From contig OZ035962.1 in assembly GCA_964034945.1 (NCBI GenBank), positions 65,622,274 to 65,686,273 of the forward strand: 64,000 nucleotides of DNA, in the 5' to 3' direction. Origin of the DNA: Chrysopilus asiliformis (lineage: Eukaryota; Arthropoda; Insecta; Diptera; Rhagionidae). Of the stretch, positions 1,086 to 49,600 are shown one piece after another. Position 1 is the first letter of the stretch; every line of letters begins with the position of its first letter. The position numbers and the translations under genes are program-made. Below the pieces are notes generated by a model. It saw only the letters and a program-made list of their open reading frames with translations. It was not told where the DNA came from and did no database searches.

Positions 1086-1489
1086 GATATGTTTAAGTGG
1101 CTGATTAATTTCAAAACATTCAAAAAATGTTTTGACTGTTAAAATCAAGTTAAACGATTTTTTATCGTTGTAAATTCTGATTGTTTTACAATTTTTTGGA
1201 TTATTTTCTAAATGTTGGCAATGGGGTATAAGAATTAGAACATAATGGCATTCGGGGATATGCTACACAGCAGTGTTGAGCAAAATTCAATCTGATTAAT
1301 GATTGGAAACTAATGATTAAAAAATATAATCAAAATTATTTTGATTTGTGATTGAATTGCTCAGTCATCATAATCATGATTTAAAAACTATGTTTTATGA
1401 TTTTTTTTGTATATATTTTTGTAATAAATCCTGAAACAATGAACCAACCAATAAAGAATTATGATAAAAAGCAACTTTAATGCCATAAA
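1086..1489. other. Non-coding spacer
   Basis: No gene is visible. At 1271 the sequence CAGTGTTGAGCAAAATTC followed by AT-rich ATTAATGATT-type repeats resembles the left end of the hAT-type palindromic elements at 24350 and 27644, but no matching right end or target duplication could be found. Confidence 0.4.
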
Positions 1490-2447
1490 GGCCATAGAGG
1501 GATAAGGGAACAAAAAGTGCCCCCAGAGATAGAAGCTTGAAATTTTTTTCGTGAGTTGCCACCATTACAACAAATAATTTCCCAAAATTTCAATCCAAAA
1601 AAACAAGTAGTTTTGGAAAAAAATAAAACATAATTTTTAAAAAAAAATTCTAGCTCCGTAATGGGTTAACCGATTTTAATGAAACCGGTTCGAATGTTTT
1701 CGTTGAAGAAAATTGTATTTAACCTTATTTGTAGAGAATTTTATTGTGATTAATTTATCTGAATCTCTAAAAGACGTACAACCCGTACAAAGTGAGATAA
1801 ACGCAAAAAACTGATTTTTGGGACCTTTGACCTTGAATAACTCACGACGCCGGCGCAATTTTGGAATGTACTTTTGGGACGTTGTTTGTTATGTGAAAAT
1901 AAAGGTATGTGCAAAAATCCAGTTACCTAGGATTTTTAAAGAGGTTAAATCCTAATTTCCCTGGATTATGTAGTCCACAAATTGATTCATCTTTCACATA
2001 ATGATAATGTGACTACCTTCACATTTTATTTTTTTTGAATGTGAAGTACCTCTCCGATTGCCCTGATTTTTTTTTTGTTTTATAAGTAAGGGATTAAGGA
2101 GTTTTTGGGAGAAAAATAGAAGTGGTGCGGAACCGCTAAGTTACCGTCGTAATTTTTTAAAAACAAAAAATATTTTTTTCTAACGGTTCCTCACACTTAA
2201 TTTTTTTTCTATAATTTTTTTGAAAACTATGACTTTCAACGAAAACATTCGAACCGGTTTCATTAAAATCGGTTAACCCGTTACGGACCTAGAATTTTTT
2301 TAAAAAAATTATGTTTTTTTCCAAAACTACTTGTTTTTTTTGATTGAAATTTTGGGAAATTATTTGTTGTAATGGTGGCTACTCACGAAAAAAATTTCAA
2401 GCTTCTATCTCTGGGGGCACTTTTTGTTCCCTTATCCCTCTATGGCC
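1490..2447. mobile_element. Fold-back element with ~220-bp inverted ends
   Basis: The left arm (1490-about 1713) begins GGCCATAGAGGGATAAGGG, and the right arm (about 2237-2447) ends in its exact reverse complement. Matching continues through the GGGGGCAC and CCGGTTCGAATG blocks for over 200 bases with few differences. The ~520-bp interior has no significant reading frame. The structure fits a non-autonomous fold-back/MITE. No convincing target duplication was found, so the superfamily is open. Confidence 0.75.
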
Positions 2448-2900
2448 ATTGTTTATATATTGAGGAAGTTTTCATTTTCTTTTCTATTTTTGTATGCAAT
2501 TTACATGATTTAAATTTTTGTTAAACCTCAAATAATGAGCAATATATCCATATTGGAAACTTACAGTTGTTATTTTGCAGATCTGTGATTATAAGAAAAC
2601 TTTTGAAAAATAGCGCCAAAAGCTGATTTCAAATTGCTACACACCGATTATCAAGTCGCTCCAGGCGACTGTCTAGGGACTCCCATAAAAACAAAAACAA
2701 AAATCGAAACTCGCCTAAACTGGCAAAAGTTCGTCTAGGTAACTTCCAAATAGAAACGTAAAGAGTGAAAAGTTCATTGCACTCTTTTGAAGAGAAAACC
2801 ATACTTTTTGCCTATCCTGGGATGTTAAACGCATTTTTCATTTTTCCATAAAGAGTATTTGTGGATAGAAATTTTACTGTTTCGGCATATCATATGCCTA
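2448..2900. other. Non-coding stretch, probably protease intron
   Basis: No reading frame or RNA gene was recognised. It lies upstream of the first visible protease exon (3255), which begins with a splice acceptor in mid-codon, so this DNA is probably within that gene's intron. Confidence 0.4.
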
Positions 2901-3254: not shown

Positions 3255-3549
3255 GTTATCGTACTTCAGCGCGATTAGTGAGCGATGAAACATGCCTCAG
3301 ATCAAAAGATATTTTTTTTACCTTAACTTCTGAAACAACCATTTGTGCTGGCGACAGAAATGGTCTCGGACCGTGTTCAGGAGATTCAGGCTCTGGCTTA
3401 TTATTAAAACAAAATGGACGGTGGGCAGTTCGTGCAGTTGTCGCAACGTCATTAGTTACTGCTGATGGAAAGTGCGATTTGAATGAATATCTGGTTTACA
3501 CTGATGTTTCTAAAGTCTATGCATGGATACAATCCAATCTCCCGAAATC
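3255..3549 (+). CDS. Protease domain A, C-terminal exon (partial)
   Basis: The exon follows the acceptor TTTTTATAG (ending 3254). It completes a Gly codon and continues YRTSARLVSDETCLRS, then TTICAGDRNG, GPCSGDSGSG with the catalytic Ser, and ends VYTDVSKVYAWIQSNLPK. It matches the last exon of domain B in phase and sequence (ARRTSAKIV... in B). The His- and Asp-bearing exons must lie more than 3.2 kb upstream, since nothing like them occurs in 1-3254. It ends at a phase-2 donor (TC|GTAATG, 3550). If that is not spliced, TAA at 3551-3553 would end the protein. Confidence 0.85.
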
Positions 3550-6500
3550 GTAATGAATTTGAGATTTTTACTATAAAGCATTAAAAGATGATAAATTTAA
3601 AAAAATGTAGCTTCTGGGAAACTGACGAGATATTAGATGCTGCTTTAGAGGTTTGCGGTAGAAACAACGAAACTGATCCTGAACCACTGAAGGAGACTTC
3701 ATTAAGGCCTGGTGATTGGCCATGGTTGGCAACATTGTATCGTCGAACTGCTCGATCCCTAAAATATTTGTGCATTGGAACTTTAATCAGTTCGAGGGCT
3801 GTCGTGACAGCAGCACATTGTCTTCATCGACTGGATGAACCCTTAATGGTTAGCGATCTTGTGGTACAGTTGGGGCAAAGCAACATTCGAGACTGGAATG
3901 AAAATTCAGTAATATCACCTGCAATTAAATACTATGACATCCATCCTAGTTTCACTCCACCCTGGAGTTCTATGGGTGATATTGCTTTAATTGTATTCAG
4001 GGTTGAAATAGCGTAAGTGTTTTACTTTTTTTTTGAAATTTTTGTGGCTGTAATTATGGTTAAACATTTCTACTCCGGACACTCTGCTCTATAACTATAA
4101 CACTTTTTACATGCTTAACGAATTCACTACCACCGAGTAAAAAAACTCAAACCACAGCCCAGGATTTTTTTGGGTAACACGACACCAATTGAAATATACT
4201 CTACCTGTACAGATTTAGAACATTCTAAACAAGCAAAAAAACCCAAACTGTCAAATATACATATATTTAACCGAATGTAATAATTAGTAATCTGCAAGAA
4301 TAACTTAACCAAATCTCAGAGTTCTTTAAAAAATTGAAAATCAAAGTCAATAGCTCAAAAATACAGGCTATATTCTTTACCAAAAAAAGATCGCTGAATA
4401 AATTGCCAGACAAAACAATTAAAGTCAAGATATCAAGATATCCAATGGTTTAAATCTGTTAAATATTTAGGCGTACTTTTAGATACGAAATTATATTTCC
4501 ACGAACATATTAACCAAATTTCTATTAAAACTCTAAAATTTAATAAAATACTATACCAATTAAGTAATAGAAGATTTAGCCTCAGCCAAGAAAATAAACT
4601 CCGATTATACAAAACAGAAATGCCCCTATAATGCAGGTCCCCATTCTGGTGCATTGGCTCACATTAAGAAACTGCAAGTAGTCCAAAATAAATGTTTAAA
4701 AACAATTCTGAATTTATCATGGGACTACTCGACAAAAATGTTACATAAGCCTTTGGAATTAACAGTCCAACAGGATACTAAGACGCTGTGGGATAAATTC
4801 ACGACAAGATGCCAATCATTAGATTTAAGTTTTAGTTATCCATTAGTTCATAATAAAGGTTTTTTTTTTCTATTTTCCTTAAAGCAATTATTCCCATCAA
4901 AGTAATTTATTTGCTAAGGCTAATATTAGATCAGAAGCTGTAAAGACAATTGTTTGACCTCTCTCACAAAAACAAAAGTTTGTAAACTCACAAAATTATA
5001 ATCATACTAATATATAAAAAAAAACACTTTAAAAAACAAGTTTTATAACCTTATACACTTTCAAAATGCACTAAAAAGTAAAAAACAAGTTTAAAGTTTC
5101 ACAAAAAATGTTTTTATAAATTGCGTGTTGTTGTGAAAATATAAAGTGTGCTGCGTTGCACAGTATGAAACCGCTATTACAGATTCAAGAGCAAATGCAA
5201 CGTCACACACTTTATATTTTCACAACAACACGCAATTTATAAAAACATTTTTTGTCAAACTTTAAACTTGTTTTTTACTTTTTAGTGCATTTTGAAAGTG
5301 TATAAGGTTATAAAACTTGTTTTTTAAAGTGTTTTTTTTATTTTTATTTTATACTTTTTAGTCTTGAATTAGCCTACCAAAAACCTCCAGAAAAGATCTT
5401 TCGCGGGAAATTTGAGCAAAAGGAAACTCAAAGGAAACTCTTTGCAGGACATTCCGTTATCATTACAGAATTTTAAATATCAGAGTCGGAGTCAGCGGTC
5501 CCAAAAACCCCTAAATGAGTTTTTCCCCGGAAAATGTGAGCAAAACCGATACTCACGTTATTCTTACAGGACATTCCATTATCCTTACAAGGATGAAGTA
5601 GTAAAAATATTGAACTTTCACCGGAACTACGCAAGGTGACAATATTTCATCTTCCTAGGTTGCATAGTTTCGGAGATATAAGATTCCAAAGATTCCAGAG
5701 ATAGACACATAGCCAGCCAGCCACATAGGTCGCGACAAATCAACTTAATAGAAAGTGTATAAAAATGAGTTGGTGTCTGTCTGTCTGTTCCTCTTTCACG
5801 CAAAAACGGCTGAACCGATAGACTTGAAATTTGGCATGAGTGTCTGTGGTAGTTCTGGTTCCAACATAGGCATACGGAAAAGTAGCGCGAGGAGTGGGGG
5901 AGTAAGGGGAGGGGGTAAAGTGATTCCGGAACTTAGTTTTTGCGCTATGTTACTCTTTCGCGGGGAAACTACTGAACCGATTGGCCTGAAATTTGGCATA
6001 GATGTTCGTCGGGGGTCCAGCCCCAATGTAGACCCATTAAAAAGTAGCCCAAGATGTGGGGGAGTAAGGGGAGAGGGTAAAGTATTCTCGGAACTTAGTT
6101 TTCCCTCTATATTACCCTTTCACGGGGAAACTACTGAACCGATTGCCCTGAAATTTGGCATAGATGTTCGTCGGGGGTCCAGCCCCAACATAGACCCATT
6201 AAAAAGTAGCCCCAGAGGTTGGGGAGTAAGCGGAGGGGGGGTAAAGTAATATCGAATGCGAGTGCTGGAATTTTGTGTTAGTTTGTTAATCATTTTCCCA
6301 AGAGAAAAAACTAACGAACAGCATGCAGGCTACCCAATTTTTAACCAACTGAATTTAGTTTTCCTAAGTTTTTTTTCTGTTCACGCTTTTAGCCGGGCGA
6401 AGCCGGGTCCAAATTCTAGTATCATATACATATATCGATCAATTTTGATCTGAATTAATGTGCAATTACAGATTTACGAATCACATTCAACCGGCATGTC

Positions 6501-8464
6501 TATGGTCTGGCAATATTGATTTTAGTGAAGGTGAATATGGTTATGTTGCTCGATGGGGTACAAATGATGGTAAGAATTTAAATAATAATCTTATTGTGTT
6601 AAAAACAATTTAAGAAAAAAACGAACACAAAATCTAAATAATTCAGCTCGCAGAACATCAGCCAAAATTGTGAATGTAGCAACTTGTCTGCGATCAAGTT
6701 ATGGTTTTGCACATTTAACGTCGAATACAACACTTTGTGCTGGTGACAAGAATGGTGTTGGTCCCTGCTCAGGGGATTCTGGTTCTGGACTTTTAGTTAA
6801 ACGTGGTGACCAGTGGATGCTGCGTGGACTTGTTGCGAGTGCATTAACATCTCTAGAAGGAATTTGTAATCTCTATGAGTACATCGTTTACACGGACGTT
6901 TCTAGGACAATTGATTGGATCAAATCTGCTCATTTAAATATCAAAAAATTGGACTCTTCGTAAGTAAATATTGTTACGTTCTTTTACAAAGTATAATATG
7001 GTATTAATGAAAAATTCCGACCTCTTAATTTTACCTAAGAAACATTTCCCGTGCACTCTTGAGTCGATTTGATCATTGCTACAAAAATTTACTTTTGTCT
7101 GTCAGTCTGTTAGCCTGTTACTCTCCTAGTGTCTAGTCAGTATGTGTACATAATTTCTCAAAAACTAATAGTGCTTGGTCCTGGAATGGGGCGATCCTAT
7201 CAATTTTTTGTGGAAATCCGTTATCCAGAAGTAACCAAAATGCCGGCTTTTTAAGAATCTCAATTAAATTTTTCGCGATTTACGCCAAAACTAGGAGTAG
7301 AGTTTGGGTAGAGTTGGAGATCATAAAATTTTCTACATTTTTTTTACTAGAGCTAAATTATCTCAAGCCGTTATCGTGATACCATTATTTAAAAAAAAAA
7401 ACAGTTTTTTGCAATTATCTCAACAATTTTATTGAAAAAATACTGTTTTTTGAAAAATTTTCGAAACTTATGCACTTTTGGGAAAAATGAATATAATACA
7501 ATTTAAAGGATATACAATTTTAAATATTGCAGAGGAAAATTTTGTGTTGATCACAACCGATATTTTTTCTCTAACTTAATTTAGATATCTATCGTTGCAC
7601 TCATCACAATCGGATGGCATATGTGGTCAAGTAGATTCATATTTCAACTTGCGGCCCTTAGCATTTGGAGGTGTCGAAATTCAACGAGGAATTTGGCCAT
7701 GGCTGGTAGCAATTTACAGAGTTCGTCGGGATACAACAAATTTTCAATGTGGTGGAACGTTAGTTTCGAAAACTGTTATCATATCAGCAGCCCATTGTTT
7801 TTATGATAGAGAGGGACAATTAAATAGCAACAACATCATAGTTTATTTAGGATTACACGAATTAAACAAACGAAATGAGTCTGGAGTTATTTCTCCGTCT
7901 GTTAAAGATATTATTATACACAGTGGTTTCAACCTGGGTAGGCAAGTAAAGGATGCTGACATAGCAATCATCACATTAAATCAGCCAATCAGGTAAAGCC
8001 ACAACAATAAAATATTGATTTCAATTGAAATAAATTATTTGGTTTTTAGTTACACGGATTTCATTCGACCCGCTTGTATTTGGAACACCCCGGAAACTTC
8101 ACAGGATCAAATTGGATATGTCGTTGGTTGGGGTCAATATGAAGCAGCAGAACTTTCTGAGCGACCTCGTCAAGTGTTTGCTCGAATCGTCGGGACCGAA
8201 GAATGCCTTCGATCTAATGAAGTATTCGCGCAAATAACCTCCAATAGAACATTCTGTGCGGGCAATCGAGACAATTCAGGACCATGTAAGGGTGACTCTG
8301 GAAGTGGTTTACTAATTGAGCATAATGGAAAATGGTTCCTTCGTGGAGTCGTTTCAACCTCATTATCGCATCCCTTGTCACAGATCTGTAATCTTCGAGA
8401 GTTTGTGGTGTACAGTGATGTCGGTCAATTCAGAGATTGGTTAAACGAAGCTACTCCTACATAG
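3255..8464 (+). CDS. Tandem-domain (polyserase-like) gd-type S1 serine protease, 3' part of gene
   Basis: Six exons join in one frame: 3255-3549, 3611-4012, 6472-6569, 6647-6959, 7585-7992 and 8050-8464. Together they give 1931 nt, i.e. two carry-over bases plus 643 codons including the TAG stop. They encode the C-terminal part of one trypsin-fold domain (A) and two complete domains (B, C). All three carry GDSGSG rather than GDSGGP at the active serine and a Gly where trypsin has the S1 aspartate, as in gastrulation-defective-like insect proteases. The A and B domains look as if they end in TAA, but each TAA lies in a splice donor (TC|GTAA), and the next domain begins at an acceptor in the matching phase. 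Domains B and C have no signal peptide of their own. The protein is probably secreted; its start lies left of the window. The alternative, three separate genes, is unlikely because only 61 bp separate A from B. Confidence 0.72.
3550..3610 (+). other. 61-bp intron (or stop plus spacer) between domains A and B
   Basis: It begins GTAATG, ends ATGTAG and contains in-frame stops. Splicing joins TC to C as a Ser codon and keeps domains A and B in frame. Its length is nearly that of the 57-bp intron in domain C and equal to that of the piggyBac intron (61 bp), so the size is normal here. The polypyrimidine tract is poor, so inefficient splicing and retention are plausible. Confidence 0.6.
3611..6959 (+). 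CDS. Protease domain B, complete (three exons)
   Basis: Exons 3611-4012, 6472-6569 and 6647-6959 give about 271 residues. Visible elements in order: CGR near residue 16 (likely the activation-peptide Cys), WPW at 37-39, TAAHC with catalytic His near 70, GDIALIV with catalytic Asp, IQPACLW, CAGDKNG, and GPCSGDSGSG with catalytic Ser. The triad is complete. Two features are odd: no R-I-V-G-G activation site (KETSLRPGDWPW instead), and VARWG where VVGWG is usual. Splice phases agree at both internal junctions (GC|A and G|CT). The first internal intron is 2.46 kb of inserted repeats, the second only 77 bp. The last exon ends at the strong donor TTC|GTAAGTAA. Confidence 0.8.
4325..4905 (+). pseudogene. 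Jockey-like LINE reverse-transcriptase C-terminal fragment
   Basis: Inside the long domain-B intron. Broken frames read KYLGVLLDTKLYFHEHIN, then LSQENKLRLYKT, then IKKLQVVQNKCLKTILN, the order seen downstream of the RT core in Jockey-clade non-LTR elements (the YLGV...D.L.W..H motif, then the LQ..QNK..R.I segment). Stops and frameshifts separate the pieces. No 5' part is present, as expected of a 5'-truncated dead insertion. Confidence 0.75.
5013..5341. mobile_element. Fold-back element, ~138-bp arms
   Basis: The left arm 5013-5150 (ending AATATAAAGTGTG) and the right arm 5206-5341 (starting CACACTTTATATT) are almost perfect reverse complements around a ~55-bp GC-richer loop. It is non-coding and lies in the domain-B intron. 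No clear target duplication was seen. Confidence 0.75.
5346..5745 (+). repeat. Degenerate tandem-unit repeat (GACCCC/CTTACAGGAC family)
   Basis: It has two diverged ~120-bp units with CAGAGTCGGAGTCAGCGG, CCCAAAAACC and TTACAGGACATTCC, related to units at 24280-25640, 39430-39850 and 51839-52331. It ends with CTTACAAGGATGAAGTAG, shared with 25622. It is a non-coding dispersed repeat with internal minisatellite structure. Confidence 0.6.
5748..6420 (+). mobile_element. Non-autonomous repeat with CTGT microsatellite and ~140-bp units
   Basis: It starts ATAAAAATGAGTTGGTG with (CTGT)n, then three ~140-bp units each containing GAAACTACTGAACCGAT and TGAAATTTGGCATAGATG. It ends near 6391-6420 with CCGGGCGAAGCCGGG followed by CTAGTAT, i.e. 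a short hairpin ahead of CTAG. That tail suits Helitron/Helentron-type elements; the assignment is inference. Inverted copies lie at about 50030-50342 and 55058-55470. A long open frame across the units is a by-product of the repeat. Confidence 0.55.
6985..7575 (+). repeat. Dispersed repeat (ATGGGACGATCCTATCAA family) filling the B/C intron
   Basis: Nearly all of intron 6960-7584 is one repeat copy: TTCCGACCTCTTAATTTTAC, a CTGT stretch, GGAATGGGGCGATCCTATC and GTGTTGATCACAAC in order. The same order is found at 27561-30285, 43285-43770 and, in part, 62155-62270. It is non-coding, and it ends about ten bases before the splice acceptor of domain C. Confidence 0.65.
7585..8464 (+). CDS. Protease domain C, complete (two exons, end of gene)
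   Basis: Exons 7585-7992 and 8050-8464 flank a 57-bp intron and give about 273 residues. Visible elements: CGQ near residue 14, PLAFGG near 25-30 where trypsins have IVGG, WPW, CGGTLVS, SAAHC with catalytic His near 71, DADIAII with catalytic Asp, FIRPACIW, VVGWG, and GPCKGDSGSG with catalytic Ser, ending in a short tail before TAG (8462-8464). All triad residues are present and Gly sits at the S1 base, so a small or hydrophobic P1 preference is more likely than Arg/Lys. Unlike domain B, there is no intron after the GWG segment. The exon starts at the phase-2 acceptor AATTTAG, matching the donor at the end of domain B. Confidence 0.85.
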
Positions 8465-8470
8465 AATAAA
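8465..8470 (+). terminator. Poly(A) signal candidate
   Basis: AATAAA directly follows the TAG stop of the protease. Further AAATAAAT-type motifs occur near 8616 and 8689, so the used site may be later. Confidence 0.4.
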
Positions 8471-11857: not shown

Positions 11858-12296
11858 CTTACGTTATTCTAATTAACAACCCCGTTAAAAAAATTGTTTG
11901 CCTTTCCTGAGATGCGGTTTCATTCTCAAGTCTCTACTCTTTAAAATGGCGGTAATTTCGCCTCTCCCGAACATTCCATTTTGTGTCAATCTTCAAGTGA
12001 AGCAAAAAATTTGCGCTGAGTTAAAGAAAAAAATATTTTTGAAAGTGAGAAGTTTTTGGGGATTAAAAAAATATATTAATTGTTGAAAGTTCAAGCTGAA
12101 AAAATTATTGGTAAATAAAAAAATAATATATTTCAAAATACTTTTTTTGTTTCGTGAGTGGAATGTGTAAAAAAGAAATGACAGGCAATTTAATATAGTG
12201 TTTCTGTAGACACACGTGCCGGTTTGTGTGTAATTTTTGTATTGTGTGGTTTGAAATGTATACGTATCACAGTTCCGTTGTTATTTGCTTTCAGAA

Positions 12297-14447
12297 ATGT
12301 CTTCCAAAAGAATATTAGAAATGTTGACCGATGATGAAATAAGGGAAATGATGATGGACCCTTTACCATATTCCGACGAATCGGAATCTGATGATTCGGA
12401 CGTCGATTTCGATGACAATAATGTTGATCCGGAATGGCGAATTCCCGACGAAGAATTAAGTGATTGTGATGAAATTATGAAAGAGGAACAAATTCTCGAC
12501 GCAGAATTAGATAAAGCCGTCGAAAACTTAGGTAGTGCGTCGTCAATGGGATTTTTAAACCAAGCTATCAATTTGAGCCTAAATATAAGCAATCTAAACC
12601 TTTTTGTTCCACCGTCACCAGTATCAGGACCATCTCAACTTGAAGCACAAACTTTAATTCCCACATCAGAGACATGTATTGACCTACCAGGTAGGCCCAT
12701 GAAAAGACCTCGGTCACCGCTACCGCAATATGATCATGACAGTCCACAAATAGACGCAACTTCTAGTGAGTTTTTGGGGGATGTAAAGGATATCGTTATA
12801 TCATCAGATGAATTCAAAAAAATTTTATGGAAGAAAAAACACTTACAGCTTCATAAGAACGCTGTGGTTTACCAAAATTCGTCCCAGCTGCCTGATAGCT
12901 ACAAAGAGTTGAAAACACCACATGAATGTTTCAATTTTTTTTTCACAAATGAGCTGTTTCAGATGATTGCAGAGAACACTAATCTGAATGCACGATCAAC
13001 AGACATTAACACAAATTTTACAGTTACGGTAACGGAAATTAGACAGTACATTGGAATACTAATATACATGTCACTGTATCGTTATCCAACAGCAGAGCAT
13101 TATTGGGGTGAACATTCATTCGAAGCTATAAGAACAACAATGACTTCGAAGAGATTTTTTTTGATTCGTAAACACCTGAGCTTCAGCGATAATTCTTTAA
13201 TCAAAAAGAAAGGTCAGATAGGGTACGATCCGCTCTTTAAAATTAAACCCGTTATTGACGTTCTAAACATACGTTTTGATACTGTGCCAAAACAGCCTCG
13301 CCTGTGTATAGACGAACAGATGTGCGCAACCAAAATGAGGTACCAATTGCGACAATATATGCCCAAAAAACCTCATAAATGGGGATTCAAACTGTTTGTT
13401 TTGTGTGATTCGAATGGATTTTCCTATCGATTTGAAGTTTATACTGGCGCGGGTGACAATGTTGTGCTTCCAGGAACACCAAATTTAGGTGCAACAGCGA
13501 ATGTTGTTGTTCGTTTGACTCAAACCGTTCCCGATTTCGTCAACCACATAGTTTATTTTGACAACTTTTATACATCTTTGCCTCTCCTTGTATATCTTAG
13601 AAGTCGTGGAATATATTCGCTTGGTACTATTCGCCGAGACAGAATTCCAAATTGTAAATTACCGGCTGACAAACAATCAGGTCATATGAAAAGAGGCGAA
13701 TCATTAGAATTTGTTGGAACTGCATATGGTATCGACATAACAACAGTGCAGTGGAAAGATACAAAACACGTAAGATTAGCATCCACTTATGTTGGAATAA
13801 AACCTTTTTTATCATCTGATCCCGAACTACCACCAAATAAAGCAACTAGGTACGATAGGAAGCAAAAAAAGTTCTTGGAAGTGGATTGTCCACGAATCAT
13901 AAAAGGTTACTCATTATTACGTTTGAACCAATTTTTATTTGAATATTTCTATTTGTTTTTTATTAGAGTACAATTATCATATGGGTGGAGTTGACCTTTT
14001 AGATGGTTTAATTGGACGATATCATATCCGACTTAGGACAAAAAGTTTTTCGCTTCGCCTTTTTTACCATCTTATTGACCTATCCTTAGTCAATTCATAC
14101 TTACTTCATAGAAGAATTCATGAATCAACACTTGAGCTTGCAGACTTTCGAACAGCTGTAGCACAAGTGTTATGCAAATATCAACCTATTGGAAAAAGAC
14201 CTGTTGGTAGACCATTATCCCAAAAAGTTACTACACAAGGTGCAAAAAAAAAACCTATTTGCCTTCCGATGAAACAAGATTTGACAACACTGGTCACTGG
14301 CCTGACTTTGTCCATCGAAGCGACAAAAAGATGTGCAAATTACCTGGGTGCAGATCCAGAACACAGGTTGTTTGCACGAAATGCAATGTTAGTTTATGTT
14401 TGACTCCAGATAAAAAATGCTTTTCAGTATTTCATCAAAAGCCATGA
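12297..14447 (+). pseudogene. piggyBac transposase, one frameshift from intact
   Basis: Start ATG at 12297 (MSSKRILEML), then an acidic N-terminus as usual for the family. Exon 1 runs to 13905 and exon 2 from 13967, joining K-E-YNYHMGGVDLLDG in frame. The likely catalytic Asp residues are D339 (CIDEQM), D422 (YFDNFY) and D546 (GGVD). Exon 2's frame ends early at about 14403, but the C-terminal cysteine-rich finger (CKLPGC...CTKC...CL) is intact in the +1 frame to 14447. The frame is lost at an A10 run at 14243-14252, so the lesion is a one-base indel in a homopolymer. About 696 residues would be expected otherwise. It could be a real break, an assembly error, or ribosomal slippage. Confidence 0.88.
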
Positions 14448-38700: not shown

Positions 38701-41700
38701 TAGCTGCCAGCAAAGCTAGTAACGAATTTAATTTTAACTGGATATTTGAGACAATGTATCTTCTATACTAATAAAAATTGCTAACATTTTTTTATATTTT
38801 AAACAGAGCTCCGATTTGGGCGTTTTTTCGCTCCGGTTTTCTGTTTCGATCTTTAGTTTTTTCGGTTCAGATTTTTAAATAACCTTAAATTGAAAAAGGG
38901 AAAGTAAAAAAATTGTATATTAAATTTATTCCGTTTTTACCTTTAGTAAACAGTGCCTTTTACATGGTAGTTATGTAAAAATTAAATAACACATGCCGAC
39001 ATGCGGATTTCAAAACTATTTCAACGTTGTTTTTATTTTGAGTACATAAATTACTCTAAATCGAGTGCCGTTTACAGATTTCGGCTATCACATCAGATTC
39101 CTACATCAACACATTATTTTCCTACATCACATTAGATTTTCTTACTACTATATTTTTATAAACTGTGAAAGAAAAGACAGCCAGAATTTGATTGAATTAG
39201 CGGATTCAGGATTTTTTACGAAAAAAAAATATATCGCATACCTAGATTAAAACAGCGTCAAATCAAAAATTTAGATTTTTTAGTTTATGTGGAACAATCT
39301 ATGTATATATAAAAATGGAAGTTTGTCTGTTGGTTGGTCTGTTTGAGATTACAAAACTCACAAACTACTGGACCGATTTTTACGCGGTTTTTTGCGAAAT
39401 GATCTGCGTTGCCAGGAGCAGGTTTTTAGCTAGGTTAGATTTTCAAAATTCGAAACAAAAGGTCCTATTAGGATAACGCAAATATCCTTTTTCTCATTTT
39501 TTCCGGGAAACATTGCCATTATGGGGTCGCTGATCACGAATCCGGTATTAGATTTTCAAAATTCGAAACGGAAGGTCCTGTAAGAATAACGAAAATATCA
39601 TTTTTCCCATTTTTCCCCGGAAAAATTGGCACTATAGGGTTTTTGGGGTCGTTGATCACGGCTCTGCTGTTGGAACTTCAAAATTCTAGACGGAAGATCC
39701 TGCGAGTGTCCTTTTTCCAATTTTTCTCGCAAAAACTGGCTTTGGGAGGTTTTCAGGATTGCTTATCACGAAACTGGTGTTGGAATTTCAAAATTTCAAA
39801 ATTCGAAACGGAATGTTTTTTCACAAAAGTTTTTAAGTTATTTATGGTTTTTTGGCATTCTAAAATTTATGCAAAAAACTTTAAGCTGGCAACGAAGGGT
39901 CTGCTAGTATCTAAAGCAGGCCTCGGCACCATATATGTAGTGATTTACTATTACTCGAAGAAATTTTATGTTTCTTCATATACTATAACACGAAATGAGA
40001 AAACGCATCTTTTTCATTTTTTACGCTCTTTCGCTTTTGATGGAGACGTTTAGGAACAGTGGACTACACAATTTATCATGATGCGATTACAAAAAAATAA
40101 TAAGTTCCGTCGTGCAAAAAAAACTTGTGGGGACGTATTTCCGGTTCTGTGCTTAGCAAAACATGCGCTACATTTCATTTTGTTACCTGATAGGACAGCT
40201 GTTGTAATGGCGTTCTAGATTGAATTTTTTATTCGACATGTAACTGCAAACTACGGTTATCATTATTTGTGGTTATTAAATATTTGTTTTCCCAATCACA
40301 CGACATAGTATTTGAATTTGAATATGAGCGCTTCATAATGGAAAATGAAAACTAAAAAAATCGAATTTCTGAAAAAAATTTCGTACGTCAGTGTACTTTG
40401 GGAAGCAATTAGGGTTTTGGGGAGCAAATGTATACATCCGCACGCATCAACAACAGAAATTATACTGAATGACTGTCGTAGGCTCGCTCCGTCGATTGTT
40501 AGTCAATCGTTTGATTTCGGCTGCCGAAGTGGCCGTCGTCTACCAACACGTATCATTGCGTTGGAGAATCGAGTAAAAATGTTCATACATTGATTGTATT
40601 CTCGTAAAATTTGAATAAAAATGTTATCGTTGTGAGGAGCCAGACGAGCCAAGGAGTGCCGAGCTCTGATCTAAAGGGTCTTTCAACAAAGACATAACAA
40701 TTTTGTATTTAAATAAAAAACAGAATAATTGAGATATCGGGTTGAACTTTATTCCAGGTGTAGTGGACATGTTACATTTAAGTGTGAAATTCAATGTCGT
40801 TCATATGGCCACCGCGAGCACGTTTGCACGGATTGATTCTTTGTAGCCAATTTTCCACCGCTCTTCCACACGTATCGACCGATATTGTTCCTGAGCTCCT
40901 CTAACGTTTTTGGCTTGTTGGCATAAACCAACGACTTAACATAACCCATAAAAAGAAATCCAACGGCGTTAAATCGCATCAGCGAGGTGGCCATTCGACC
41001 GGACCATCATTTCATTCATCATTTCATTCATCATTTCATTTCATCATTTTCATTATCATTTCATCGGACTCAGAATTTCGGTAGTAAGTTTTAATAATTT
41101 CCAAACGTTGCTCGTTCGTGAACTTCACCACGATAAAAATGTAAACCTTGACTGACGTTTTAGCATTGCCAGATCATAAAAAAAGTTTTAAAGTGCGTTT
41201 TTATTAAAATACAAAATTGTTCTGTCCTTGTTGAAAGACCCGATATATAAAAAACAAATAAACAATGTTTGTTTATGATTAACATACCAATGTTTTACTA
41301 CGTTTGTAAAAACCACTTCATATCTCTTATGCAACAAACCTTTTTAATGTACATAATTCACTTTCTTCATGTTAATTAGAAAATACTTATTTTATGAAAT
41401 ATAAGAAAATAAATAATTACAAATTACCGTATAAACAATGTTGCCTAGCACTAAGTATCCACCGCATTTTCCGTTACCCCAAATCACTTCTGTCTCATAT
41501 GCCAGCATTGGAAGCCAGTAAAGCATACTTGAATGTATTAATGCGTTTATAATCCACACCCAAAACACTTTAACATTAAATAATTTTGCACTTTGAGATG
41601 GTTTATATAAAGCTGGATATTTCAACATAGTTTCAGCTGAACAAACTTTATCAAACAATCCCATTGCAAATGGTGGTAGTGCAGTAAACACAACATTATA

Positions 41701-44700
41701 TAAACCAATAGTCCATCGCTCAAATAAAATTTGTCCCGACCTGAAAATTTATGATTACGAATTATTTAAAGTCCTTTTGTTGAATTTAAAAAAATATTTA
41801 CCATCCCGAGTAAATTGCAAACCACAGTTCTATCACGTAAAGACATACATTTTTATAAAAACTATACAATATCAGTTTGCACATTCGGCTATAATTCCAA
41901 GCTCCATGTACAAGTAAAAGACGAAGCAAGAACCGAAACTGAAATATATAATAAATGAATTTTTATTTATCTTATTGATTAAATCCGATTGTGTTAATAA
42001 TTTGTTAAGGATTCTTCAATCAATTTCTTTTAATAACTTTGCTTTAATCAAGTTTGAATATCTTCTAAGCAAATATGCCTGTTGCTCATTCAAATTCAAT
42101 ATTACTTTTATAATTTATCCTTGGTCATTTGATAGTAAATAATATAAACTTCTTAGAAAAAAGAAATTTTATGAGTGGATGGAAAGGAAGCAATAATGAA
42201 ATAAATCTATATATAAAAATACTTGTGCTATAGAATAATCAGATGCACACGCTGCTTGCAATCCTTCGGCTCCAGATATTCCGACACCAACGTGGGCTTT
42301 TTGAATCATAGCCACATCATTAGCTCCATCGCCGATAGCTAAAGTGACGCACTGAGTATTCGTTGTGACAAGATCAACAACCTAGAAAAAAAAATACAAA
42401 TATATAGAAATTTTAGATAAATTAAAATTTTTTATTTTGTTTTTTCATATTTTTATAATTTTTTATCTATACATATAATAAGTCTGTAATTCTGTCTGTC
42501 TGTCGAATTTTGTTCCGGCATCACGTGAAAACTGCACAACCGATTTCGACGAAACTTTGCACACACGTAGAGTTACTAGCAGAATAAATCATAGGCTACT
42601 TTTTATTGACCTCCCCCCTCTTCTTCGATACCCCTCCCCAGATAACTTTCGAACCGTTCAACCGATTGGGGTGCGGCTTCCACTAATAGAGAAGTCATTC
42701 CTCAGGGAAATTTTTCGCCCACTAATAGCTACTCCCTCCCCTCTCGGTAAACTATGAATTACATCAGTGTGTTTAGTAAGAAAAAAAAGTTGATTTTTGC
42801 ATGTCCGTCCGTCGTCTGTCTGTCCGTCCGTCTGGGGCGCGAATTGCGGGCGCACGGATTGAGCTAGAGACTTGAAATTTTGCGCAGATCCGTTTTCCGT
42901 AAAATGCGAGACTAAGTTCGTTAACGCTTTTGCGAATATCTCAAAAACAGTGTATCAAAATCCGATTGGAATAAATTTTAAAAAATCTTATTGGAAAGTT
43001 TGACTTCAAACTTGAATTTTGATACAACTGTTCAAATTTTGATACGAATATCACCATACGGGTTTCCCATAATGGCCAGTTTGGCAATTATAGCTTTTGG
43101 TTTGTTTTCTCCATCACGCCAAAATAGTTCAATCCATTGCGATAAAATTTTTGGCTGCGTAGCGGTTCGGGGCGCAGCCCCTAGTATTGAAAATATGTCC
43201 ACAAACAAAGCATTACTTGCATTGACTGAGATCGTCGTTTTGCTTGCAAGTCACATTTTGCTTGCAAGTCACTTTTGTTTCTTATATAATAAATAATTGT
43301 ATTCATAAAGAATTTCGACCCCTAAATTTTACCTGAAAAATAGCTCCTAAGTTGAATGAAGCATTTTTTCAAAAATTTCTTTTTGTCAGTCAAGATTTCT
43401 CACAAATTACTGGAGCTAAGAACATTAAATTTTACAGGGATGTTTGATAGTGGAATGGGACGATCTTATCAACTTTTGCTAAAAATCCGTTAACCGGAAG
43501 TAACTAAAATGGCGGCCTTTTGAAAATCCCGCGATATACTCCGAAATTACGCGTTTTTCAGTAATCTTATGTATGGTAACAGTAAAATTTTCTACACTTG
43601 TGGGTTTTACGATCCAAATATATCGTTATTTAAAAAAAAATCAATTTTTGCGATTGATTTTTTCTCTCGGGTTTCGGTGATTCAATGTATGGAACGAATT
43701 GAAGAAAATAATATTTCCCACGTTATCCGCTATCTTATACCGTTATTGAGATATTTTCATTAAAAAGTAAAAATCTCTAATGTGAACAGCACATGACTTT
43801 CTTATACAAAATCTACGTTTATGTGCTATCCACATCAGATATTTTTACTTACGTTTATAGCAGGATATACATATTCGGATCTAGATGCATTTTGAAAAAA
43901 CGTCAACTCATAATTGATAGATTTTACTCAAAGTAGAATTTGAAAAAAAATTTACAAGTCCTTGTTACAGAAATTTTATAACCAAAATTTTCATATTTAC
44001 CTCTGCTTTTTGCATGGGCGATACTCGGCAACAAATGACAACACGGCATGCTGTACAAAGCTCTAAGAAATCTCTGCGTAGATCACAACTAAGAGCATAC
44101 TTGAGTGTTTTACCATCCACTATTAGGGCGACATTGCTTTCTTTCGCACACTGGTCCCGAAAATCGCCACAATGTTTTTGAATGCATTCGCGTGTATTCT
44201 ACATTAAAATTAATTTTAAAAAAAACTTAAAATTTAATTACATGTAAAATATTTACATCTAAACTATCCTCATTTAATATAATCAAGTCCATATTCTGAG
44301 ATATTAGTTTACAGGAATAACCAATGTTTATAGCAGTCTCTTGTTTATCGCCTGTCAGCACCCAAATATAAATATCGGCTTTAAGTAAGGCAGCTATTGT
44401 TTCAGGTACACCTTCTTGCAATTTATCTTCGATTGCTGTTGCGCCCAATAGTCTTAAATTATTTTCTATTAAGTTTGCCGCATCCTCAACCTTACGCTCC
44501 CGATATTGCATCGCTGTTGATGCTTTATGGTAAGTCTCCTTCCACTCATTATATACATCATCTGGTATTAGAGAAACCGCACAGCATAATGTTCTCAGTC
44601 CTTCAGTGGCAAATTCCTCTAGATGGCGAAGAGTAGCTTCCCGAAAAGCTTGTCCTTCAGGTGAGAGACGTTCATAAATAACTGTATCAGCTCCCTTGCA

Positions 44701-46604
44701 ATATAGTTTTATTTCGCCTGCTTCATTTCTTACAATTACCGACATTCGTTTACGGGTCGATGTAAACTCTAGAACATTGAGAATTTCATATCGTTCTCGT
44801 TTTCCAAGGGCGTCAATTTCAACGCATGATGGTGTTCTTGTATCAAAAACATACCCGAATTTCTGTGCACCATGTACTAAAGCACGTTCGTCGGGACTAG
44901 CAGCGTGATAGGTAATTGTTCCATCATCATTTTTTTCTGGTATAACCGTATGACAAACAGCTAATAATGTGAGAAATTCCTCAATAATTGGTGCGGTTTG
45001 ATGATTACTCTTTATATTCTGAACTAATAAAGTTTGCTCTGGTGTATCTTCAGTCATATAGACAAATTGCGCTATCGAACACTTTTTAAATTCCATAATG
45101 TTACGGGTTAAAGTACCAGTTTTATCTGAGAATATATATTTCACCATGCCGAGCTCCTCATTAAGATTTGATGTTCGTGCCATGGCAGGCGTATCAGATT
45201 CCTCATGGTACATTTCAACATCGAAATTTATAAATATTGCCTTTAAAAAGGATATGAAAAAATTTCAATAATAAATTATGTTAGTCCATTTAATATATAG
45301 TTTAGTTTATCAATAACTCAACGAAATAGAACTGGTTGTTTGTTGCTTTACAAGTTAATGCACAGTCCGATTTTTTTATTATTTGTTTTTCAATGAAAGA
45401 CCTTTGCTTTTTAATTACCTTGGGACAGCCTTTACTTTTAGTAAGATTAAGACTTGTAAGAGGACAGGGAAAAGAATAGGTATTTTTTCCTACTCAAACA
45501 ACTGTTGTGAGATGTCGTTTTGTCGAACGGACGGTCAACATTTCCATTTATTTCAATGCTGGGTTCGTTTTGTAATAATAATGATATTTTGAATTTAAAG
45601 ACTTATGGCGAATTAGAATCACAAATTTTGACTATCACCCTAACTCTGAATGGCGAACTAGCCGACAAATGTCACATCACGGCCATTTTGGTATTTTTAT
45701 TGGCCAGTGTAGTGAAATGGGTAAATTTTTCGATAGGTCTGTCACCGCCAAATTGGTATGTCTTTATAATAGAAAATGTTTTAATCCATAAAAGAAAGGA
45801 TTTTTTGATTTGATTTTTAAAACATAACAAAAGCTATAATTGCCAATCTGACAATCATTGGAGACCCGTATGGTGATATTCGTATCAAAATTCGAACAGT
45901 TGTACCAAAATTCCAGTTTGAAGTCAAACTTTCCAATAAGATTTTTTGAAATTTATTCTAATCGGATTTTGATGTATGGGACTTTTATGTAGAATCATAT
46001 CCTAAATAACTTTTGTTCTTGGACTTTTTTGATAAAATTCACCGTTTTTGAGATATTCACAAAAACCGTTTTCGTTCGTATGGGGGGTACCCCCCCTTAT
46101 GGTCCATTTTTGCCCATGAACGAACTTAGCCTCGCATTTTACGAAAAACGAATCTGCGCAAAATTTCAAGTCTGTAGCTCAATCCGTGCGCCCGCAATCC
46201 GCGCCACAGACAGACGGACAGACGGACGGACATGCAAAAATTAATTATTTTTATCATTCTAAACACACTGGTGTAATTCATTTTTGTATGCGATGACGGG
46301 ATCTTGGCGTTACAAACGGTAAGGCAAAGTTAATATACCCTTTGGTTTCACCATACGGGTATAAAAATTAATATTTTGTGAAATTAAACTGTTTTTAGGT
46401 ATCAGGGGGCGTTTTTTTTTGTGTGACTGAGAAGGTATTTTTATCAGGTTACTCTTTTGCCATTTTTATACCCGTGAAACCAAAGGGTATATTAAATTTG
46501 CCTTACCGTTTGTAACGCCAAGATCCCCTCATCACACACAAAAATGAATTACACCAGTGTGTTAGAATGATGAAAAAAATTGAATTTTGCATGTCCGTCC
46601 GTCC

Positions 46605-46635
<31 letters not shown>

Positions 46636-49600
46636 GCGCGGATTGAGCTAGAGACTTGGAATTTCACGCAGATTCGTTTTTCGTAAAATGCAAGGCTAAG
46701 TTCGTTAATAGGCAAAAATGGACCATTAGGGGGGTACTCCCCATACGATCGAAAACGTATTTTGCGAATATCACAAAAACGGTGCATCTTATCAAAAAAG
46801 TGCAAAAACAAAAGTTATTTAGGATATAATTGTACATAAAACTCCCATACATCAAAATCCGATTGGAATAAATTTTAAAAACTCTTATAGAAAAGTTTGA
46901 CTTCAAAATGGAATTTTGATACAATTGTTCACCGTTCACTTAAATCCCCATACGGGTTTTCAATAATTGCCAGATTGGCAATTATAGCTTTTGTTATGTT
47001 TTAAGTAAACATTACACATTTTGACTGGCGTATACAATCGAGCGTTTGTAAGGCGCCTCTTAGAACACTTCGCAAAAATTTGTTGATATTATTTAATGGG
47101 AAAAGCTGCCTAAAAATGTTCACTTATAGAAGTTTTTCCCGAAATAGATAGAAAAAATAACAATCTATAAACTTACCTGTAAAAACCGAACTAATTCAAG
47201 TGTCACTTGAAGCGAGATGGGGATTAAATTATTGTATAGAATTATAAAAGTTAGAAGATTATATCCGAAATTTTTGCTTAAAACATCTGAAATATAATAT
47301 AATTACCAATTAAATGTTTGAAAAAAATATCAATAATAAAACATTACCTGCAATACCGAGATACCAATCACTTTTGAAATGGTTTCTAGTCCAAATTTCG
47401 TTGAAAATGGCACTAACAAGGCATAGAACGATAAGAATCATAAATAACATCAAAATCTGTGTATTAGTCAGTCTATCAACGGTTGAGCGCTTTAATGGCG
47501 CTGAGGTAGAGTTTCTCATAAGTTTTGTATCATGCCCAGTGTAAATGACGACTCCAAATATCCACGAGGTGTTGCGTAAGACAGCTCCACGCAGTAATAT
47601 TTGATCAGGCCCGATTGGGACCGATCTGAAAATTCAATAACAAAGTATAAAAATTAACACAGCGACAAAAAAGTCAATATGTTTAGTTACATCTTTTCAT
47701 CTTCCTTAAGAACACCGTTAAATTCATATAAATGCCTATTTGGTAGCTCACATTCAAGTGTTCCCTTGAAATGATTTAAATCCTTTGTCTCAAGAAGTTT
47801 TGCTGTTGAAGGAACACCTTGACGGATTTTAAGATTCGTTTCTCCATCCAAATTCGCAGTTTCAATGAATGACATTCCCTGCGGTTCACTAAAAAATACA
47901 CAAACAGGTGAGAAAATTTGATAAAAAGTGTGAAAACCAATCCACCGATAAAAAATATAGCTTAATCCCTCTAGCGGTGATTTCTTAAATAATTACTATA
48001 TGATAAAAAGTTTGGTATAGTTTTAAAGTCAATATAATGGGACATCGGTTGGATTCTTTTTAAAATTGGTAAAGCATAAACTCAGTTTAATGTTAAAAAA
48101 AACACAGTTTAATATTAAATAAACACAGTTTAACCAAATTTTTACTGGGATTTTACTGGGGAAAATAGTAAATATTCTTTTTTTACTGTTTCCCCAGCAA
48201 AATTTATTACACGGCTTTTCCCCAGCAAAATTTATTACACGTTTCGGGAATTACTGATCTTTTCCAGTAATTTATTGTATACTAGCTTGCAAGGACCCGG
48301 CGTTGCCCGGATAGTAATAAATTTTTGAATATGAAAGAACCCTTTTTATACCCGTATGGTGAAACCAAAGGGTATATTAACTTTGCCTTACCGTTTGTAA
48401 CGCCAAGATCCCGTCATCGCACACAAAAATGAATTACACCAGTGTGTTTAGAATGATGAAAAAAGTTGAATTTTCCATGTCCGTCCGTCTGTCTGTGGCG
48501 CGGATTGCGGGCGCACGGATTGAGCTAGAGACTTGAAATTTTGCACAGATCCGTTTTTCGTAAAATGCGAGGCTAAGTTCGTTAATGGGCAAAAATGGAC
48601 CATTAGGGGGGTACCCCCCATAGGAACGAAAATGTTTTTCGCGAATATCTTAAAAACTGTGCATCCTATCACAAAAGTGCAAGAACAAAAGTTATTTAGA
48701 ATATGATTCTACATAAAACTCCCATACATGAAAATCCGATTGGAATAAATTTTAAAAAATCTTATTGGAAAATTTGACTTCAAAGTGGAATTTTGATACA
48801 ACTGTTCGCTGTTCACTTAAATCACCATACGGGTTTTCAATAATTGCCAGATTGGCAATTATAGCTTTTGTTATGTTTAAGTTATGCAGTAATTATATTT
48901 CAAATAATTTTTTTGGTTTGACGCACTGTTTTCAAGGAAGTTGCAAATATTTTTGACGTGGATACGTCTCGGATTTTGATTTACAAATTAGAAAATCGGC
49001 TTGCTGCCATGATAACTTGTGGTGGTAGTTTGTGGTGACATCCGAACAGAAACTGTGTTATAAGATCCTGCCTACACTAAAGCATTGTTTAGGGTATTTT
49101 GTTATGTTAAACTATTTTCACTGCCGCTGTTATGCTGTGTTTGCTGCTTGTAGTACAGATTTCACATTTATACTCTTTATGTTTTCTTTGTGGTATTGAA
49201 TATTTGCAAGAGGCTCAGGAAAGAGAATACGACGAAGTATGTTGAGGTTGAGTGAGAGCTTTTACTCTTGATTGTTTCTCTTCTCTATATGGGTTGTTCT
49301 GGTTCTGGAAATTCATTTTACTTGATTGCCCAGTGTTTCCTTTAATTTCTGTATACGAGTTGTGTGAGCAGGCGGATTGTGTTAAGACTGTAAATTGAAA
49401 TTGCTTTGTTGTTTTTATCGTGTAATTTTATTTTATTTTGATTTTTATTTGTTTTTCATCTATGGGCGTTTTCATGAATGCAAATTCTGCAAATAACACA
49501 AAAGATTTTGATAGTAATAAACCCAGTTATATGTTATTCATTTAGTTAGTTTACTTTCGCAAATTACTGAACAACTTAAGTATTACGGGGAGATGGAAGA

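What the first reader, a model, noticed from the sequence alone, without database searches (positions are those of the whole stretch)
3255..8464. A polyserase-like gene: tandem gd-type protease domains in one polypeptide
Seen: three S1 protease domains follow each other with only 61 bp and 625 bp between apparent stop and next domain, no signal peptide or promoter space, and six exons that stay in one frame (1931 nt = 2 + 643 codons). Known: insect S1 proteases usually have one catalytic domain; tandem catalytic domains (polyserases) are rare. Inference: this is a multi-protease chain, possibly cut into separate enzymes or acting as linked active and regulatory units.
Basis: partly seen in the sequence, partly recalled or inferred. 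Interest (0 to 1): 0.78.

Follow-up and report, generated by a model that had tools for sequence, protein, structure and literature searches.

The report
Three-in-one insect protease gene family
The window holds most of a fly gene that strings three protease units into one secreted protein; the same gene occurs about eleven times in this genome, and in most copies only the last unit still looks like a working enzyme, so the first two probably control or aim it.

Summary
The six window exons splice in one frame; the 61 bp and 625 bp gaps are phase-2 GT-AG introns. Domain A is cut by the window edge: in the host genome the gene continues upstream with two more A exons and one signal-peptide exon.

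Eleven loci on the same chromosome carry the same A-B-C order. Nine fell out of the aligner with one intron-phase series; in R7a and R7b I re-read the A-B junction by eye. A, B and C each form one clade, so the triple was copied whole. Of 22 domain junctions, 17 are 49-69 bp and none holds a signal exon; three gene-to-gene gaps are 1.4-1.85 kb and each holds one.

The catalytic triad is intact in C in 11 of 11, in A in 2 of 11 and in B in 3 of 11; the window copy keeps all three. Only C has a zymogen-type N-terminus. The domains are of the gastrulation-defective (gd) kind, without its GD_N domain.

Best reading: a secreted polyserase with a catalytic C domain and two regulatory protease-fold modules. 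No RNA or protein data were available.

The parts
3255..3549 (+). domain A, last of three exons (C-terminal part with the catalytic Ser, GPCSGDSGSG)
   Evidence: preceding A exons at C3:65613989-65614359 and C3:65620475-65620572, signal exon at C3:65609844-65609937, all upstream of the window
3550..3610 (+). A-B junction intron, 61 bp, phase 2, GTAATG..TGTAG; its first in-frame codon is the apparent stop TAA
   Evidence: weak sites; same position and phase in the paralogues
3611..4012 (+). domain B exon 1 (linker, TAAHC His, GDIALI Asp)
4013..6471 (+). intron in B, 2459 bp, phase 2, filled with repeats (144-nt-arm inverted repeat 5017-5339, 162-bp tandem repeat 5878-6248)
6472..6569 (+). domain B exon 2 (98 nt)
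6570..6646 (+). intron in B, 77 bp, phase 1; domain A has an intron of the same phase at the same place, C has none
6647..6959 (+). domain B exon 3 (catalytic Ser, GPCSGDSGSG)
6960..7584 (+). B-C junction intron, 625 bp, phase 2, GTAAGT..TTTAG; its first in-frame codon is the apparent stop TAA
   Evidence: no signal-peptide exon inside
7585..7992 (+). domain C exon 1 (linker with ICGQ, PLAFGG activation-type site, SAAHC His, DADIAII Asp)
7993..8049 (+). intron in C, 57 bp, phase 2
8050..8464 (+). domain C exon 2 (catalytic Ser, GPCKGDSGSG) and stop codon TAG
   Evidence: AATAAA at 8465

Best explanation
The window holds six of nine exons of one secreted three-domain S1 protein of roughly 830 aa: signal peptide, then S1 domains A, B and C, without a GD_N domain. 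It is one of at least 11 paralogues that descend from a single three-domain gene. Shown from DNA: domain order, frames, intron phases, one signal exon at the 5' end, co-descent of A, B and C, purifying selection, and where the triads are kept. Inferred: after secretion, cleavage at the L|AFGG-like site frees the N-terminus of C and makes C the working protease; C stays tied to A and B through the Cys just before the site (ICGQ) and the Cys of the RPAC motif, the Cys1-Cys122 link of chymotrypsin numbering (recalled). A and B, which lack a zymogen-type N-terminus, serve as regulatory or substrate- and partner-binding modules. In the window copy their triads are still complete, so weak or special activity of A and B is not excluded.
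For: One frame over six exons in the window and over eight in the genome. The A-B-C order in 11 loci, seen by tblastn and by spliced alignment; phase series 2,1,2,2,1,2,2 in 9 of 11 as found, and in R7a and R7b after re-reading the A-B junction by eye. A, B and C clades 100/99, 99/94 and 100/100 (again 100/99, 100/96, 100/100). Signal exon with start ATG in 10 of 11, its best donor of any phase being phase 1 in 10 of 10, against phase 2 at both domain junctions. Junction introns 49-64 bp in 9 of 11 (A-B) and 52-69 bp in 8 of 11 (B-C); none of 22 holds a signal exon; three gene-to-gene gaps of 1396, 1708 and 1847 bp each hold one. Triad: C 11 of 11, A 2 of 11, B 3 of 11. Median dN/dS over paralogue pairs: A 0.38 and B 0.46 (55 of 55 pairs each), C 0.19 (52 of 55 with dS defined). 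Two C1 loci examined show a dead first and a live second domain, joined by phase-2 introns of 54 and 150 bp.
Against: No transcript or peptide. The A-B splice sites of the window copy are weak. The spliced aligner was given the window's own chain as query, which favours that order (the tblastn map does not). R7b has an in-frame stop in A exon 1 and R3a shows no in-frame ATG in its signal exon, so 2 of 11 copies may be broken. R1-R2 and R4a-R4b are recent pairs (dS about 0.1-0.3), so the loci are not 11 independent cases. The R1-R2 dN/dS for B is 0.78. The regulatory role of A and B and the activation of C are inference.
Confidence: 0.72

Rival explanations
1. Three neighbouring single-domain genes, each with its own promoter and signal peptide, that look like a chain because they lie close together.
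For: In-frame stops follow A and B if the introns are retained. Ordinary one-domain gd-like genes exist in this genome (C1:91163860, GD_N plus S1 in one 482-aa frame).
Against: 17 of 22 domain junctions are 49-69 bp long and none of the 22 holds a signal exon by my criteria; in the window copy the B-C gap of 625 bp holds none either. Real gene-to-gene gaps in three loci are 1.4-1.85 kb with a new signal exon. Junction phases are conserved across loci with synonymous divergence around 1.
Confidence: 0.04
2. One gene with choice: B and C are alternative cassettes, or junction introns are retained or B is skipped, so the gene yields A-only, A-B, A-C and A-B-C proteins.
For: Both junctions are phase 2, so A to C skipping stays in frame. 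Retention stops the protein directly after B in 11 of 11 and after A in 6 of 11. The weak A-B sites of the window copy would suit regulated retention.
Against: Direct joining of the signal exon to B or C is out of frame: the best signal-exon donor is phase 1 in 10 of 10, the B and C acceptors are phase 2. No RNA data, so minor isoforms stay open.
Confidence: 0.15
3. The window copy is a true triple enzyme: A, B and C are all active, either within the chain or after being cut apart as in human polyserase-1.
For: His, Asp and Ser are present in all three domains of the window copy and of its near-copy R2, and in B of R3b. In human polyserase-1 three domains are released and the first two are active (PMC1435904, passages).
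Against: A and B lack a zymogen-type N-terminus in 22 of 22. Triad losses in A and B on different branches show that the chain does not need their activity elsewhere in the family.
Confidence: 0.1
4. The window copy is a decaying duplicate without a product.
For: Repeats fill its introns; the A-B splice sites are weak; two of the other ten copies show a likely defect, and one further C3 match has seven stops.
Against: About 800 codons are open with all three triads intact. R1-R2 dN/dS is 0.49, 0.78 and 0.46 for A, B and C, below 1, though on few changes.
Confidence: 0.07

Closest known systems
Human polyserases 1, 2 and 3 (PMC1435904, abstract and passages seen)
   Same: Two or three S1 domains in one translated chain; in polyserase-2 only one of three domains is active and the domains stay in the chain.
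   Different: In polyserase-2 the first domain is the active one, here the last is the conserved one; the domains here are of the gd kind; polyserase-1 is membrane-bound with an LDL module, here there is only a signal peptide.
Tenebrio molitor polypeptidases (PMC11172050, passages seen)
   Same: Insect chains of two or three S1 domains with active and dead units mixed; L# activation sites; the same paper lists GD-domain peptidases with L|V.. sites and Gly at position 189.
   Different: Most carry Sushi domains before each unit and have the active unit first; here there is no regulatory domain between units and the active unit is last.
Single-domain gd / gd-like serine proteases (GD_N PF16030 plus S1), e.g. 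C1:91163860 in this genome and Drosophila gd
   Same: S1 domains fall among dipteran gd-type domains (97/94 for B and C; 95/88 for the C-terminal part of A, B and C); conserved GPC.GDSG and C(D/N)L..(Y/F) motifs.
   Different: No GD_N domain; three S1 domains instead of one.
Mythimna gene models with two gd-type S1 domains (P0002-P0005, P0007, P0122)
   Same: Two S1 domains in one predicted chain; a GD_N match in five of the six.
   Different: The Mythimna domains fall outside the dipteran gd clade that holds the window's B and C (97/94), so the tandem arose separately; two domains, not three.
Phlebotomus argentipes LOC132261647 (P0001), best hit
   Same: Two gd-type S1 domains in one gene model, about 44% identity over 40% of the query.
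   Different: Order GD_N-S1-GD_N-S1 with a second signal-like stretch inside; I read it as two fused gene models (inference).

Membership tests
polyserase / polypeptidase (tandem S1 domains in one chain) | two or more S1 domains encoded in one open reading frame after splicing | tested here: met
   642 aa in the window, about 800 aa over A-B-C, in frame in the window copy and without stops in 10 of 11 loci
polyserase / polypeptidase (tandem S1 domains in one chain) | translated as one polypeptide (cDNA or protein) | not testable with these tools
polyserase / polypeptidase (tandem S1 domains in one chain) | at least one domain with an intact triad | tested here: met
   C in 11 of 11; window copy has all three
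gd (GD_N plus S1) family | N-terminal GD_N domain (PF16030) | tested here: not met
   10 GD_N matches in the genome, all on C1, none on C3; no GD_N HMM hit in the window's first 3.6 kb or the arrays. One weak tblastn hit (E 0.008) in an intron of R7a was not confirmed by the HMM. In 10 of 10 joined loci the signal exon leads straight into A
gd (GD_N plus S1) family | S1 domain of the gd clade | tested here: met
   B and C inside a 20-row all-dipteran gd clade (97/94); A, B and C inside the same kind of clade (95/88), on 97 columns
gd (GD_N plus S1) family | role in the embryonic Toll cascade (Drosophila gd) | not testable with these tools
   no expression or genetic data
independent tandem single-domain genes | each unit has its own signal peptide exon | tested here: not met
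   one signal exon before A in 10 of 11 (R3a has a similar stretch without ATG); none in 22 of 22 junction introns

The most novel reading that the evidence does not exclude
A lineage-specific family of built-in pseudoprotease regulation: two protease-fold modules fused in front of a live gd-type protease have replaced the GD_N prodomain, have lost catalysis at least twice each, and are kept by selection as the control or targeting part of the enzyme. The window copy preserves the triple-triad state, so the change from enzyme to regulator can be tested among copies of one genome.
Probability: 0.35. Interest if true: 0.7.

Novelty: new variant of a known kind. Interest (0 to 1): 0.5.

Why it matters
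Pseudoprotease domains are common in insect immunity and development, but what a dead unit does for a live one is hard to test when they sit in different proteins. Here 11 copies of one gene in one genome keep the last unit alive while the first two lose catalysis to different degrees, with two copies still triad-complete throughout. That is a ready series for asking when and why a protease domain becomes a regulator. It also shows how a tandem unit can become a chain: phase-2 donors at the end of A and B lie across the place where the stop would be if the intron were retained.

Tried and rejected
Separate genes and alternative 5' cassettes were considered and disfavoured (see rivals). D0, an extra S1 frame upstream of R5 and R6, looked like a fourth domain; its motifs (GDGG in place of GDSG, long CGRR.. 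lead) make it a neighbouring protease homologue of the clip-type SPH look (recalled resemblance), and it was found only beside R5 and R6. My enumeration of alternative B-C splice pairs returned nothing because I gave the wrong frame; it was not repeated, since one search finds the pair. My tree of the C-terminal part has 97 columns for 54 rows and resolves little. In some searches no non-gd outgroup was included and the root is for drawing only, so the depth of the A+B branch is not settled. In one search the branch of C1_47_d1 is long (2.06) and its place unsure. Structure prediction was not tried: the tool states that it takes only letter-for-letter translations, and these proteins are spliced. 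Rfam and ARAGORN found nothing in the window. Paper searches: 26 papers held 3 of 5 terms, 20 listed; 15,704 held 2 of 4 terms, 20 listed; 0 papers; 1 paper holds both 'polyserase' and 'gastrulation defective': PMC11172050; 15 papers; 9 papers. None of the listed titles describes a three-domain gd-type chain; that is a statement about listings in an open-access library, not about all print. Homologue searches list at most 120 rows each of 225, 51 and 427; searches scored only the 7991 and 7993 candidates sharing most words.
Full report
WHAT IS IN THE WINDOW. They are 3255-3549, 3611-4012, 6472-6569, 6647-6959, 7585-7992 and 8050-8464, with GT-AG introns of 61, 2459, 77, 625 and 57 bp, 1931 nt in all, that is 2 bases plus 643 codons including the stop. 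Pfam gives three Trypsin stretches. In the 64 kb, tblastn with the three domains and 120 homologues finds S1 coding sequence only at 3257-8464. Domain A is incomplete here: only its last exon lies in the window.

THE GENE IN ITS GENOME. The window is C3:65622274-65686273 of a 429 Mb assembly in 42 contigs. Spliced alignment with a script of my own places two more exons of A upstream, at C3:65613989-65614359 and C3:65620475-65620572, and a scan finds a signal-peptide exon at C3:65609844-65609937. The gene thus spans about 21 kb and has nine exons, six of them in the window. The joined start reads MELLKIIQVKTITPVLIAFVFCFGSSQN and goes into domain A within a few residues; which of three possible acceptors is used in the window copy is open.

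ELEVEN COPIES. A genome search with the first exon of C gave 79 matches at E up to 0.001, a lower bound by the tool's own note. I fetched eight regions of C3 and mapped S1 exons by tblastn: the order A-B-C with short gaps recurs in 11 loci, called R1 (the window), R2, R3a, R3b, R4a, R4b, R5, R6, R7a, R7b and R8. Spliced alignment with the window chain as query gave the intron-phase series 2,1,2,2,1,2,2 in 9 of 11. In R7a and R7b the aligner placed the A-B junction oddly; read by eye they have a donor ACC|GTATGA and an acceptor TTTCTAG|A of phase 2, with introns of 285 and 2490 bp. R2 is a recent inverted near-copy of the window gene about 0.8 Mb away (dS 0.08-0.11), and R4a-R4b are also recent (dS 0.11-0.28), so the copies are not independent.

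WHY ONE CHAIN. First, A-B introns are 49-64 bp in 9 of 11 and B-C introns 52-69 bp in 8 of 11; none of the 22 junction introns holds an ATG frame with a hydrophobic stretch and a usable donor. Second, where two such genes stand in a row (R3a-R3b, R4a-R4b, R7a-R7b) the gap is 1708, 1396 and 1847 bp and each holds a new signal exon. Third, the best donor of the signal exon, scored over all phases, is phase 1 in 10 of 10, while the acceptors of B and C are phase 2, so the signal exon cannot join B or C directly in frame; skipping of B would stay in frame. Fourth, A, B and C form three clades of 11 (100/99, 99/94, 100/100), as expected if a three-domain gene was copied whole. Against: the A-B sites of the window copy are weak when scored alone, the aligner query was the window chain itself, and there is no RNA.

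WHICH DOMAINS WORK. His, Asp and Ser are all present in C in 11 of 11, in A in 2 of 11 (R1, R2) and in B in 3 of 11 (R1, R2, R3b). Fisher's test of last against earlier domains, 11 of 11 against 5 of 22, gives p = 2e-5, but the rows are related, so this is only a guide; the tree needs at least two losses of the catalytic His in A (R4 pair; the R3-R5-R6-R7-R8 group) and two in B (R4 pair; R3a with R5-R8) (my count). C has an L|AFGG-like sequence or close variants in 11 of 11; none of the 22 A and B domains has it. Drosophila gd rows lack it too. A and B are still constrained: median dN/dS over paralogue pairs is 0.38 for A and 0.46 for B, against 0.19 for C. Two copies look damaged: R7b has an in-frame stop in A, R3a shows no in-frame ATG in its signal exon.

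KIN. With 53 rows including non-gd proteins, B and C fall in a 20-row clade of dipteran gd-type domains (97/94), apart from the two-domain Mythimna models. On the C-terminal part A and B are sisters (98/89), and they share a phase-1 intron that C lacks. The genome has 10 GD_N matches, all on C1 and none on C3; C1:91163860 is an ordinary one-exon GD_N-S1 gene. Of three more C1 loci examined without GD_N, two (L028, L037) are two-domain chains with a dead first and a triad-complete second domain joined by phase-2 introns of 54 and 150 bp, and in the 6 kb fetched for the third (L038) only one domain was seen. The second domains group with C (96/93). The C1 arrays near 101.3 Mb, the rest of 47.8 Mb and of 7.7 Mb were not examined further.

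DATABASE. The best hit of 225 proteins is a Phlebotomus model with 44% identity over 40% of the query. Among the 151 proteins scanned locally, none joins three gd-type domains (P0021 shows three pieces that I read as two domains). So no independent annotated copy of this triple was found. One search, with B alone, gave 427 proteins, 120 listed, best identity 43%.

HOW IT PROBABLY WORKS. Shown: gene anatomy, co-descent, selection, triads. Inferred: secretion of one chain; activation of C by cleavage after the Leu before AFGG; C held to the rest by the chymotrypsin-type Cys1-Cys122 bond (recalled); A and B acting as binding or restraining modules. The S1-pocket residue 189 is Gly in A, B and C of the window copy, as in the GD-domain peptidases tabulated for Tenebrio (PMC11172050, passages), where specificity is not assigned. 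Whether A and B of the window copy still cut anything is open.

STANDING. Tandem S1 chains are known: human polyserases (PMC1435904, abstract and passages) and seven Tenebrio polypeptidases (PMC11172050, passages). This is a new variant: gd-type, no GD_N, two earlier units mostly dead and the last one live, multiplied in one genome.

Noticed in passing
window 12255-14400: Transposase frames (Pfam DDE_Tnp_1_7, piggyBac type by my recall) in two pieces: 12255-13991 and 13927-14400 match successive parts of the profile.
   Followed up: partly
window 41395-60364, minus strand: Exons of a phospholipid-translocating P-type ATPase (PhoLip_ATPase_C, Cation_ATPase; E1-E2_ATPase below its cut-off).
   Followed up: partly
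window 1487-2450 and 5017-5339: Fold-back repeats: arms of 142 nt (96% complementary, 680 nt apart) and of 144 nt (97%, 35 nt apart), both inside introns of the protease gene.
   Followed up: no
window 5878-6248: Tandem repeat of period 162 bp, 2.3 copies, in the B intron; similar translated phrases appear in frames near 50 kb and 55 kb.
   Followed up: no
C3:66446485-66464556 (R2): Inverted near-copy of the window gene about 0.8 Mb away; exon 3 of its domain B differs more from the window copy than the rest, which could be a local conversion.
   Followed up: partly
C3:108085977-108086360: A match to C exon 1 with seven in-frame stops, probably a dead copy.
   Followed up: no
C1:101.32-101.38 Mb, 47.78-47.82 Mb, 7.71-7.74 Mb: Further arrays of gd-type S1 exons, some with GD_N pieces nearby; only parts were fetched.
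   Followed up: partly
R5 1803-2738 and R6 4652-5620 (C3:113.03 Mb, C3:86.47 Mb): One-exon protease homologues with GDGG in place of GDSG, about 60% identical to each other, upstream of the R5 and R6 chains.
   Followed up: partly
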